A stretch of 36,855 nucleotides of DNA, taken from contig JAJZXF010000020.1 of the NCBI GenBank assembly GCA_021802485.1, positions 1 to 36,855 on the forward strand, in the 5' to 3' direction. The notes under the pieces are model-generated. The model was not told the origin of the DNA. It worked only from the letters and a program-made list of their open reading frames with translations, and ran no database searches. The first letter of the stretch is position 1; every line of letters begins with the position of its first letter. This DNA is from Actinomycetes bacterium (GTDB lineage Bacteria; Actinomycetota; Acidimicrobiia; Acidimicrobiales; JAJZXF01). The translations under genes and the position numbers were made by a program. Below, piece after piece: positions 33,364 to 36,855 of this stretch.

Positions 33364-34656
33364 TCATTCGCCCTCGTCAGGTTCGAACGTGAGCTCTACG
33401 GGTCCCACCCTAACCGTGTCTCCGGCCTTCGCACCTGCTCTCGCGAGTGCGCGTTCAACGCCGAGACTCCGCAGCTTCTTCTGCACGTGCCTGACAGCAT
33501 CCTGATCAGTAAGGTCACTCAATGCAACGGCTCGCACTGCCAAGCGACCGCTCACAACAAACACCTTGCCGGCCAAGCGCGCCACCCTCACTCCTTCCGG
33601 CTCGGGACGCGAAACCACCGTCGATCTCCTCTGGGGCCCCCGCTGTGCAGCATCCTGGACCAACCCTGACAGCGCATATGTGAAGCTATTCAATCCAGCA
33701 CCTGTAACAGCAGAAATCTGTGACTCCGGCCAGACGCTGCTCGAGGTGGCAAGATCCACCCTCGAGCCAACGATGATCCGAGGCAGATCGGCCAGTTCGC
33801 TGCTATAGCGAGCTAGCTCACTGGTGAGGATGCGCTCTTGTTCCTCGGGCGACTCCATGCGATCCTGCGCGAGATCGACGAGCACGACCAGAGCTCTTGC
33901 CCTCTCGACATGCCGGAGAAATCGCTGGCCGAGCCCCCTACCATCAGCAGCGCCCTCTACGAGGCCAGGGATATCGGCCAAGACAACCTCTCGCTCGTCA
34001 GCGCCGTCTCCAATGCGAACGACACCGAGATGCGGTTGCAAGGTGGTAAACGGGTAGTCGGCGATCTTCGGTCTTGCAGCTGAGAGCCGGGAGATCAAGG
34101 TGCTCTTGCCGGAGTTCGGAAATCCGATCAGCGCAACGTCGGCCATGAGCTTCAATTCCAGTTGCAGCCAGCGTTCCTCTCCCTGCTCTCCCTGCTCAGC
34201 AAAGGCAGGTGCACGCCGGCTATTTGACAGGAAGCGCGCGTTGCCCATTCCACCATGCCCACCCTTGGCTGCAAGGAATCGATCTCCCTCGACCATCAAG
34301 TCTGCCAACACTTCGCCGCGGCGATAGCCATCAGTGCTGTGCGCATCGCCGCCGCCGAGTGATGCAACCACAGTTCCCTCCGGCACCTGCACGAACAGGT
34401 CCTCACCCCTTGGCCCATGGCGCTTTGCACCACTGCCGTGGCCACCGTCAGCGCCCCGCCTGTGCGGGTGGTCTTTGAATGCGAGCAGTGACGCGGTCTT
34501 GCGGCTCGCTACCAACCACACAGATCCGCCGCTGCCCCCATCCCCGCCATCCGGACCACCACGGTTCACATGCGCCTCGCGCCGGAACGATACCGCCCCC
34601 GCGCCACCATCGCCGCCCTTAGCATGAACGCGAGCCTCGTCGACAAAACCTTGCAT
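33364..34656 (-). CDS. obg: GTPase Obg/CgtA
   Basis: Obg is an essential ribosome-associated GTPase acting in 50S assembly and stress control. The glycine-rich Obg fold begins MQGFVDEARVHAKGGDGGAG. The G domain has GFPNSGKSTLIS (G1), YPFTTLQPHLG (G2) and LADIPGLVEGA (G3); the guanine-specificity position reads VGSRVD where NKxD is usual. A C-terminal OCT domain (about 340-430) ends VELTFEPDEGE. I chose ATG 34656 rather than 34716 because the Obg fold starts there and TAGTAT lies 7 bases upstream. Obg usually follows rplU-rpmA; here an IS607-type element lies upstream instead. Confidence 0.96.
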   Translation of the reverse strand: MQGFVDEARVHAKGGDGGAGAVSFRREAHVNRGGPDGGDGGSGGSVWLVASRKTASLLAFKDHPHRRGADGGHGSGAKRHGPRGEDLFVQVPEGTVVASLGGGDAHSTDGYRRGEVLADLMVEGDRFLAAKGGHGGMGNARFLSNSRRAPAFAEQGEQGEERWLQLELKLMADVALIGFPNSGKSTLISRLSAARPKIADYPFTTLQPHLGVVRIGDGADEREVVLADIPGLVEGAADGRGLGQRFLRHVERARALVVLVDLAQDRMESPEEQERILTSELARYSSELADLPRIIVGSRVDLATSSSVWPESQISAVTGAGLNSFTYALSGLVQDAAQRGPQRRSTVVSRPEPEGVRVARLAGKVFVVSGRLAVRAVALSDLTDQDAVRHVQKKLRSLGVERALARAGAKAGDTVRVGPVELTFEPDEGE

Positions 34657-34663
34657 CGCTGCA

Positions 34664-34669
34664 ATACTA
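34664..34669 (-). promoter_or_regulatory. -10 hexamer TAGTAT for leaderless obg
   Basis: On the minus strand TAGTAT ends 7 bases before the obg ATG at 34656, so obg has its own probable leaderless promoter and need not depend on genes beyond the IS607-type element. Confidence 0.5.
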
Positions 34670-34778
34670 CCGGCATACAGGAAACGCTCCCGCCATCCGA
34701 TCACCGAGCCACCCAATAATCACCGCATGCGACACTCTGTCGCGAAGATCAGAGCTTCATCCACTGAACCTCGGCTGG

Positions 34779-34970
34779 TCACCGGGAACCCAGAGGTGGG
34801 GACTCTTGCTGTTTGCTCTTGGCACTGCACTCGCAGCAGCAACTGCCGTTCCCCAAACCATCAGCAAACATCTCACTGACGGAGTAAGCCTTACCTGATA
34901 CAGCAGGCTTGGCTCTCTGGGCGGTTGAACTTCCAACCGTGCCGCTGTCGTGGGCAGATGCACGAGGCAT
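34779..34970 (-). CDS. Possible 63-residue cysteine-rich ORF after tnpB
   Basis: An ATG at 34970 overlaps the tnpB stop (TGATG). The 63 residues include a CCCEC cluster near residue 46 and end PPLGSR. There is no known motif. The region is also where a TnpB guide RNA would be encoded, so the frame may be incidental. A second frame of similar length overlaps it (34757-34963), which lowers confidence in both. Confidence 0.2.
   Translation of the reverse strand: MPRASAHDSGTVGSSTAQRAKPAVSGKAYSVSEMFADGLGNGSCCCECSAKSKQQESPPLGSR
34922..34939 (-). ncRNA. Hairpin at the candidate 3' end of TnpB guide-RNA scaffold
   Basis: On the minus strand, 31 bases after the tnpB stop, CGGTTGGAAGTTCAACCG forms a perfect 6-base stem with loop GAAGTT. 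In TnpB systems the guide RNA overlaps the 3' end of tnpB, and its scaffold ends in a hairpin at the transposon edge, followed by a guide copied from flanking DNA. If that holds here, the element ends near 34920 and the guide would be read from about 34921 downward. This is inferred from position and structure only. Confidence 0.35.
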
Positions 34971-36685
34971 CAGGCCACCGCCTTCTTAGGGCTGGGTGAG
35001 ACTCCGTCAAGTACGCCGACAGAGCCGGTGGCGACAACAGCTTCCCGATCAAAGGGGCGGTCCCCGACAGAACTGCGTCGGGCGGTCTTCCTCCCCCATC
35101 CATCAGCCTTGCGGCTTCCGGCTCGGGCACACCCCCGCGAACTGCGGGTGTCTTGGTCTCGCTCCCAGCCATCGGGGCGTATGGGTAGCTTCGACCAGTC
35201 GACCGGGGTTCCGGTCACAAGTTGTGCCAACAGGCACACTGCGGCGAGCTCTGCCAGAGCCGCCAGGTTCTTTGCTGCGTTCAAGTCTCTGTCGATGGTG
35301 AGCCCGCAGGCGTCGCAGTGGAACACCCGGGCGGTGCGGGGCAGGTCGGCTTTTTTCGTCCGACAGGCCGAGCACATCTTCGACGACGGGTACCACCGGT
35401 CGGCCAGCCACAGCGAGGACCTGTGCCAGGGGCACTTGTAGGCAAGCTGGCGGCGGTACTCGGCCAGGGCTGCGTCCGCCCACGCCCGGTTGAACCCGCG
35501 CTTGCCCCGGCCTTTGCGCCCCATGCCCGATACGCCCAGGTCCTCGACCACGTTGACGGCGAATGTGGTGGCAGCCCGGTAGCTCGCCTTGTGGATGGTG
35601 TCACGCCGTACATTTGCTGCCCCGGCATGAGCCTTGGCGAGGCGGGCCTGGTTCTTCTTTGACCGCTTGGAGCGGGCCTGCCAGCGGCAGGCGCTCTTGA
35701 TGTGGGTGCCGTCGGGACCGAAGCAGGCCGGTGAGCCCGTGCGGTACTGGCGGTCCATCCTCCGCTGGTAGCGGGAGATGTGCTTCGCTTCCTGCCTGGA
35801 AGCCCTCGGGTTCCCGGCCACGGCGCCGTCAGAGGAAGTCACCAGGGCAGAGATCCCCACGTCGTGCCCACCGACACCTTTGAGGGCTTTAGCAGAAGCG
35901 CCCCGCTTGGCGATGACGGCGAAGGATACGTAGGTCTTTCCCCCCTCAGTAACAAGGGTGGCCCGCAATATGCGGGCGGTCCCGGCCCCGATGCGCTGGC
36001 GTAGCTTGTCGGTGGGCTCCTTCACCCGCACGACGCCCACCACCGGGAGCTGGACGCGGTGGCGGTCTACCACCTTGATCGCCCCGGTGGTGAAGCTCAC
36101 CGACTGGCGCCCCCGACGCCCCTTGTGGCGGGGCCAGCCGACGCGGGGCCCCTTGCGCTTGCCCGAGGCCGAGTCGGAGTAGTTCGTGAACGCCTGAGCG
36201 AGTGCCTCGAAGCCCGACGAGTACGCTTCCTTGGAGTTCTCTGACCACCAGCCGACCCCCGGCACCACCTTGTCGGCGAACCTACAAGCCTCTTTGGCCG
36301 TTGCGCCCTGACGGAGCGCCAGAGTCTCATAAACCCGGCGGGCGTGGATGTGTTCGGATGCGGCCGCACGCTCACTGTCGGACCTGGCTGTGACCAGGTC
36401 CTTCTCGTCGTTCCAGATCTTGCGGAGCTGGGCCAGCTTCCATGGCACCGGGACCATCAGCTTCGCCCACTCGTCAGCCTCGGAAATGCTCGCCCCGGAG
36501 CGAAGAGCCAGCACCCGGTAGGCAGCTCTGGCACGTAGGTGCTCCTCCACCAGACCGAGCCCCCAGTTCCACGCGAAGCGCTTGGCTCCTTCGTGAGAGG
36601 CGATGGCCGGATGACGCACTGGTCGGTCCACCTCGAAACGATACGCCTGGTGCACCCAGCCCGGAGGAAGGTCGATCTTCGCCAT
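34970..36685 (-). CDS. tnpB: TnpB RNA-guided nuclease, IS607-type
   Basis: TnpB cuts DNA under guidance of an RNA made from the transposon end and is the ancestor of Cas12. The 571-residue protein begins with the family's PPGWVHQAYRFEVDR. The RuvC residues are present: Asp275 in GGHDVGIS, Glu381 in VVEDLG, and Asp466/468 in TIDRDLNAAKN. The zinc finger is intact (CSAC at 438-441 and CDAC at 457-460), so the nuclease may be active. TnpB usually has 370-500 residues. Here an extra ~50 residues (about 97-146) sit between IWNDEKD and WWSENSKEAYSSG, and they repeat residues 48-82. The long polar C-terminal tail (from about 500) may overlap the guide-RNA gene. The start lies 3 bases after the tnpA stop. 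Confidence 0.92.
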   Translation of the reverse strand: MAKIDLPPGWVHQAYRFEVDRPVRHPAIASHEGAKRFAWNWGLGLVEEHLRARAAYRVLALRSGASISEADEWAKLMVPVPWKLAQLRKIWNDEKDLVTARSDSERAAASEHIHARRVYETLALRQGATAKEACRFADKVVPGVGWWSENSKEAYSSGFEALAQAFTNYSDSASGKRKGPRVGWPRHKGRRGRQSVSFTTGAIKVVDRHRVQLPVVGVVRVKEPTDKLRQRIGAGTARILRATLVTEGGKTYVSFAVIAKRGASAKALKGVGGHDVGISALVTSSDGAVAGNPRASRQEAKHISRYQRRMDRQYRTGSPACFGPDGTHIKSACRWQARSKRSKKNQARLAKAHAGAANVRRDTIHKASYRAATTFAVNVVEDLGVSGMGRKGRGKRGFNRAWADAALAEYRRQLAYKCPWHRSSLWLADRWYPSSKMCSACRTKKADLPRTARVFHCDACGLTIDRDLNAAKNLAALAELAAVCLLAQLVTGTPVDWSKLPIRPDGWERDQDTRSSRGCARAGSRKADGWGRKTARRSSVGDRPFDREAVVATGSVGVLDGVSPSPKKAVA

Positions 36686-36688
36686 CAG

Positions 36689-36855
36689 CTACATGCTCAC
36701 ATCTGGCCGTATCAGTGCCATCGGACCTACATCGTGCTTGGCGCAGTTGAGCGCCTTCTCGGCTCGGTTCCGAGCGCCTCGGCGGCCGTAGAGGCGAGCG
36801 CAGAACGAGGTGAGCACCTCGGTCATGTCTCGCACCAGGTCGTCGTCGACTTCAC
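36689..36855 (-). CDS. tnpA: IS607-type serine recombinase TnpA, C-terminal fragment
   Basis: Only the last ~54 codons are inside the window; the first full codon starts at 36853. The frame reads EVDDDLVRDMTEVLTSF, then ARLYGRRGARNRAEKAL, and stops at TAG 36691-36689. This is the characteristic end of IS607-family serine recombinases. The catalytic serine and helix-turn-helix domains lie outside the window. The stop is 3 bases before the tnpB ATG, so the two are coupled. Confidence 0.85.
   Translation of the reverse strand, partial: EVDDDLVRDMTEVLTSFCARLYGRRGARNRAEKALNCAKHDVGPMALIRPDVSM

What the first reader, a model, noticed from the sequence alone, without database searches (positions are those of the whole stretch)
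36248..36544. Internal duplication inside a TnpB nuclease
Residues 48-82 and 111-146 align nearly without gaps: HLRARAAYRVLALRSGAS against HIHARRVYETLALRQGAT, then a similar helix ending VPVPW / VPGVGW. The second copy sits as an insert of about 50 residues between two segments that are normally adjacent in IS607-type TnpB (IWNDEKD and WWSENSKEAYSSG). This is the N-terminal, target- and RNA-recognition half, while the RuvC triad and zinc finger are intact. The DNA of the two copies has diverged, so the duplication is old and has been kept. A TnpB with a duplicated recognition module could have altered guide-RNA or target-motif contacts.
Basis: partly seen in the sequence, partly recalled or inferred. 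Interest (0 to 1): 0.7.

Follow-up and report, generated by a model that had tools for sequence, protein, structure and literature searches.

The report
Duplicated hairpin in a TnpB nuclease
A transposon-encoded RNA-guided DNA cutter (TnpB) in an uncultivated actinobacterial lineage carries a real, old and maintained second copy of a small two-helix unit, inserted in the part of the protein that holds the target DNA; it shows one natural way in which these small enzymes can grow a larger recognition lobe.

Summary
The 571-aa IS607-type TnpB (34970-36685, minus) holds residues 48-82 and 111-146 as two diverged copies of one ~35-residue unit. The second lies in a 49-residue segment (97-145) that replaces the usual four residues 'EVAP' before the conserved WWSENSKEAY helix. 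Score 79 against a maximum of 48 in 1000 shuffles; a profile built from inserts alone finds copy 1 as the next-best hit in the whole genome. AlphaFold folds the insert confidently as a helical hairpin like copy 1, not a disordered loop. Six genomes of one order carry it (four times in this genome); it is under purifying selection. Deeper relatives have one copy; some close sisters also lack the second, so one old gain with later loss or exchange is likely. Best reading: a REC1 enlargement adding backbone/heteroduplex contact or rigidity, not a new motif specificity. New variant of a known kind; no precedent found in the searches made.

The parts
34970..36685 (-). tnpB ORF, 571 aa, IS607-type RNA-guided endonuclease
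   Evidence: NF038280 IS607_TnpB E 1e-102; 344 bits against a cut-off of 350
36440..36544 (-). copy 1 (residues 48-82): end of the long first helix plus short second helix of REC1
36398..36439 (-). residues 83-96, helix KLAQLRKIWNDEKD; N92 aligns with ISFba1 N61 (TAM backbone contact)
36251..36397 (-). insert, residues 97-145 (49 aa), replaces EVAP of single-copy relatives
36248..36355 (-). copy 2 (residues 111-146)
36164..36250 (-). residues 146-174, WWSENSKEAYSSG helix; S156 aligns with ISFba1 K83 / ISDra2 Q80 (TAM base contact)
35861..35863 (-). RuvC D275
35543..35545 (-). RuvC E381
35285..35287 (-). RuvC D467 (second D of DRD)
   Evidence: assigned by alignment to ISFba1
34846..35105 (-). 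conserved 3' region: end of tnpB plus right end of the element, presumed guide (omega/re) RNA scaffold, ends GGAACGG
34826..34845 (-). presumed 20-nt guide CAGTTGCTGCTGCGAGTGCA (first bases outside the element)
36689..36855 (-). 3' end of IS607 tnpA (serine recombinase), cut by the contig end
   Evidence: NF033518, E 1e-9 on the last 29 profile positions

Best explanation
An IS607-element TnpB whose REC1 domain has been enlarged by internal duplication of one helical hairpin. In an ancestor that already had the long copy-1 hairpin of this family, a second copy was placed in the loop between the helix that touches the TAM backbone and the WWSENSKEAY helix that reads the TAM. It was kept, probably because it thickens REC1 beside the TAM-proximal DNA and gives extra non-specific contacts (to DNA or heteroduplex backbone, or to the guide-RNA scaffold) or rigidity. 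Shown: the duplication, its place, its predicted fold, purifying selection, single-copy deeper relatives, patchy presence among sisters. Inferred: the role; TAM identity and guide-RNA type seem unchanged.
For: Copy similarity far above shuffles and profile-profile E 4.6e-12; the insert-only profile retrieves copy 1 genome-wide. Predicted fold: insert helices 103-125 and 130-140, pLDDT about 86-95, mirroring copy 1 (end of helix 26-62 plus helix 67-77); the single-copy sister L003 has the same bundle without them. Insert pN/pS 0.19-0.42, about as low as the nuclease part. Inserts diverge between the two sub-lineages as much as the RuvC part does (pN 0.25 v 0.26, Q-L155). Place relative to TAM contacts from the ISFba1 paper PMC11061315 and alignment. 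Flanks and guide-RNA ends do not track the insert.
Against: Model coordinates could not be inspected against DNA or RNA, so contact is inferred from position only. The alignment given to AlphaFold held few insert-bearing rows. The flank comparison has only five against four elements. The charge of the insert is near neutral by eye, which does not speak for strong nucleic-acid binding. No activity data.
Confidence: 0.55

Rival explanations
1. The second hairpin changes or lengthens target-motif (TAM) reading.
For: The insert starts five residues after N92 (ISFba1 N61 equivalent) and ends eleven before S156 (ISFba1 K83 / ISDra2 Q80 equivalent).
Against: Left flanks are G-rich with GG at the junction in elements with and without the insert; L002's flanks rejoin in frame into an uninterrupted 4Fe-4S protein sequence RWGMVIDQDRCIGC, fixing TGGGG next to the guide. 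The sample is small.
Confidence: 0.15
2. The hairpin contacts the guide-RNA scaffold and co-evolved with it.
For: TnpBs adjust and co-evolve with their RNA in known IS607 systems (PMC10711439); two RNA 3' types exist in this family.
Against: The window protein and L004 have the insert with the long 3' type; L006 lacks the insert but has the short type; the RNA core is shared.
Confidence: 0.15
3. A tolerated, functionally neutral REC1 expansion: the loop accepts inserts, and this one happened to be a duplicate.
For: Sisters L005/L006/L007 carry a different insertion nearby; RdCas12n appears to have unrelated extra residues at about the same loop; the insert is absent in several close sisters.
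Against: Purifying selection on the insert and many invariant positions in it, including the RQGA turn, across nine inserts.
Confidence: 0.15

Closest known systems
IS607 TnpB, ISFba1 (PDB 8iaz; PMC11061315)
   Same: WED/REC1/RuvC/zinc layout, RuvC triad, IS607 tnpA next to it, guide RNA running off the right end, G-rich target-side flank; best Foldseek match
   Different: 387 aa; no duplicated hairpin at the REC1 site; RAGATH-18 RNA, of which no match is found here
ISDra2 TnpB (PDB 8h1j, 8exa)
   Same: overall fold, TM 0.84 over the target; TAM-facing helices align
   Different: IS200/IS605 element, no duplicated hairpin, AT-rich TAM
RdCas12n (PDB 9j09)
   Same: TnpB-like nuclease with about 48 extra residues apparently in the same REC1 loop
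   Different: CRISPR effector; its extra segment has no evident sequence likeness to this one, and its placement rests on a low-confidence part of the alignment
Single-copy sisters (L003, L008, L010, L032 and others)
   Same: same family, same copy-1 hairpin, same RNA core
   Different: no second copy; KDEVAPWW-like loop
Fanzor1 / Cas12 REC insertions (PMC10711439)
   Same: enlargement of REC1 near the heteroduplex
   Different: not described there, in the passages read, as duplicates of an existing REC1 hairpin

Membership tests
IS607-type TnpB | profile match to IS607_TnpB NF038280 | tested here: inconclusive
   344.2 bits, E 1.1e-102, just under the curated cut-off of 350; guided_TnpB NF040570 178 bits is above its cut-off of 100
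IS607-type TnpB | RuvC D/E/D and four-cysteine zinc ribbon | tested here: met
   D275, E381, D467; C438, C441, C457, C460
IS607-type TnpB | IS607 serine recombinase tnpA upstream | tested here: met
   C-terminal end only, the contig ends there; full-length upstream ORF in relative L002
IS607-type TnpB | TnpB fold | tested here: met
   AlphaFold model, mean pLDDT 84, matches 8iaz and 8h1j first
IS607-type TnpB | guide RNA at the right end, running into the flank | tested here: met
   conserved region ends at GGAACGG, then unrelated flank in 18 loci; transcription not tested
IS607-type TnpB | RNA-guided DNA cleavage | not testable with these tools
   needs an assay
RAGATH-18-associated IS607 TnpB | RAGATH-18 RNA downstream | tested here: not met
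   no Rfam match up to E 1 in 34500-36855
Type V CRISPR effector (Cas12n, C2c8) | curated family score | tested here: not met
   V_cas_c2c8 67 bits against a cut-off of 350
Type V CRISPR effector (Cas12n, C2c8) | CRISPR array beside the gene | not tested
   no array search was run

The most novel reading that the evidence does not exclude
Internal duplication of a REC1 hairpin is a route by which TnpB-type nucleases grow Cas12-like recognition lobes, and this clade is a natural before/after pair in which the added hairpin extends heteroduplex or DNA contact and so changes guide length or mismatch tolerance.
Probability: 0.2. Interest if true: 0.65.

Novelty: new variant of a known kind. Interest (0 to 1): 0.38.

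Why it matters
How the small TnpB recognition lobe grew into the larger lobes of Cas12 is an open question. Here is a family with and without a duplicated REC1 hairpin at a place between the target-motif contacts, with an otherwise shared guide-RNA core and similar flanks, so the effect of one natural enlargement can be tested directly by removing or exchanging 49 residues. In itself it is a modest finding.

Tried and rejected
Chance similarity: rejected. Disordered loop: rejected by the model. Recent duplication: rejected, DNA of the copies about 50% identical. A mobile or known small domain: no Pfam match to either copy, and apart from TnpB relatives no hit to the insert profile below E 1e-3 in about 800 genomes of the order and phylum (one hit at 1.0e-3, G408, was not examined). 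Insert-bearing members as one clade: disfavoured (AU p 0.011 and 0.034), although the long stem of the family makes the root uncertain. Two independent duplications: rejected because the linker TARxDxER is shared. RAGATH-18 RNA: none. Consensus folding of the right end gave only a weak structure and was not used. Plasmid and viral collections gave only more distant relatives, below 60% identity; insert presence was not checked in each of them.

Full report
Observation. The ORF at 34970-36685 (minus, 571 aa) is an IS607-type TnpB. The reported stretch 36248-36544 is residues 48-146. Copy 1 (48-82) and copy 2 (111-146) share 18 of 36 aligned positions; local score 79 against a maximum of 48 among 1000 shuffles. 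In relatives the likeness persists, e.g. L001 has VLALRQGA in both copies. Inserts mostly resemble copy 1 of insert-lacking relatives about as well as their own copy 1 (Q insert: 87 against L032, 79 against its own), and do not resemble the same place in ordinary IS607 TnpBs (15-38). A profile made only from inserts, searched over the whole own genome in six frames, returns the four inserts and then the four copy-1 segments.

Anatomy. Ordinary IS607 TnpBs and close sisters read like LRRIWNxEKD-EVAP-WWxENSKEAY; here EVAP is replaced by 49 residues (97-145): a linker LVTARSDSERAAAS and the second hairpin. AlphaFold (61-row alignment, mean pLDDT 84) gives helices 26-62, 67-77, 84-98, then 103-125 and 130-140 for the insert, then 152-174. 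The single-copy sister L003 gives 26-62, 67-77, 84-98, 107-129. So the added piece is a second helical hairpin on the plan of copy 1. Nearest solved structures are ISFba1 and ISDra2 TnpB.

Place relative to function. In ISFba1, N61/N62 touch the TAM backbone and K80/K83 the TAM bases (PMC11061315). The 8iaz chain numbering is three lower than the paper's; I inferred this because the catalytic D371 then falls on an alanine at chain position 368, as in an inactivated protein. By the profile alignment N92 matches N61 and S156 matches K83 (ISDra2 Q80). The insert therefore lies, in sequence, between the two TAM-facing helices.

Evolution. The insert is found in this genome four times (C129, C140, C42, C21) and in G043, G038, G653, G032 and G313, all of the same order. 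In the phylum-wide sample only the own genome had full-length hits. Deeper relatives (L012, L126, L168, L170, L094) have one copy. On trees made without the insert region, insert-bearing rows fall on both sides of the deepest split of the family (bootstrap 97-100), and holding them together is disfavoured (p 0.011, 0.034). As the linker is shared and the inserts are as diverged as the rest, I take one old gain with later loss or exchange; the root is not certain. Insert pN/pS is 0.19-0.42, like the nuclease part.

Element. The right end is fixed by GGAACGG followed by unrelated sequence in 18 loci; in the window it ends at 34846 and the presumed guide is CAGTTGCTGCTGCGAGTGCA. In L002 the two flanks rejoin in frame through RWGMVIDQDRCIGC, which fixes TGGGG before the guide. 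By the same register other insert-bearing elements show AGGGG, CAGGG, AGGGG, ATGGG and insert-lacking ones AGGGG, AAGGG, TGAGG, TAGGG. The six bases just inside the left end vary between elements, so the exact left boundary is uncertain by a few bases. Two guide-RNA 3' types occur, and neither goes with the insert.

Judgement. A real and maintained duplication; its function is most likely REC1 enlargement without change of motif, which is inference. REC1 insertions are known in Fanzor1 and Cas12 (PMC10711439). A duplicated REC1 hairpin in a TnpB was not found in the open-access library with the searches made, which is weak evidence of absence.

Noticed in passing
L152 901-1083 (own genome contig C3): A right-end/guide-RNA remnant 95% identical to that of the C140 element; only the last 30-35 residues of tnpB match there. 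Possibly a stand-alone guide RNA with guide CTGGCTTGGAACGATTGGGA, or just a truncated element.
   Followed up: partly
L005, L006, L007 (single-copy sisters): A different, additional stretch of about 26 residues after copy 1 (EMNEARRKTHEAKVASGERK...), a separate REC1 expansion in a sister lineage.
   Followed up: partly
window 34970-35158 (residues 510-571): C-terminal tail predicted as disordered (pLDDT about 33) while its DNA is well conserved, as expected where coding sequence overlaps the guide RNA.
   Followed up: partly
PDB 9j09 (RdCas12n), profile alignment: About 48 extra residues apparently at the same REC1 loop; not evidently related in sequence.
   Followed up: no
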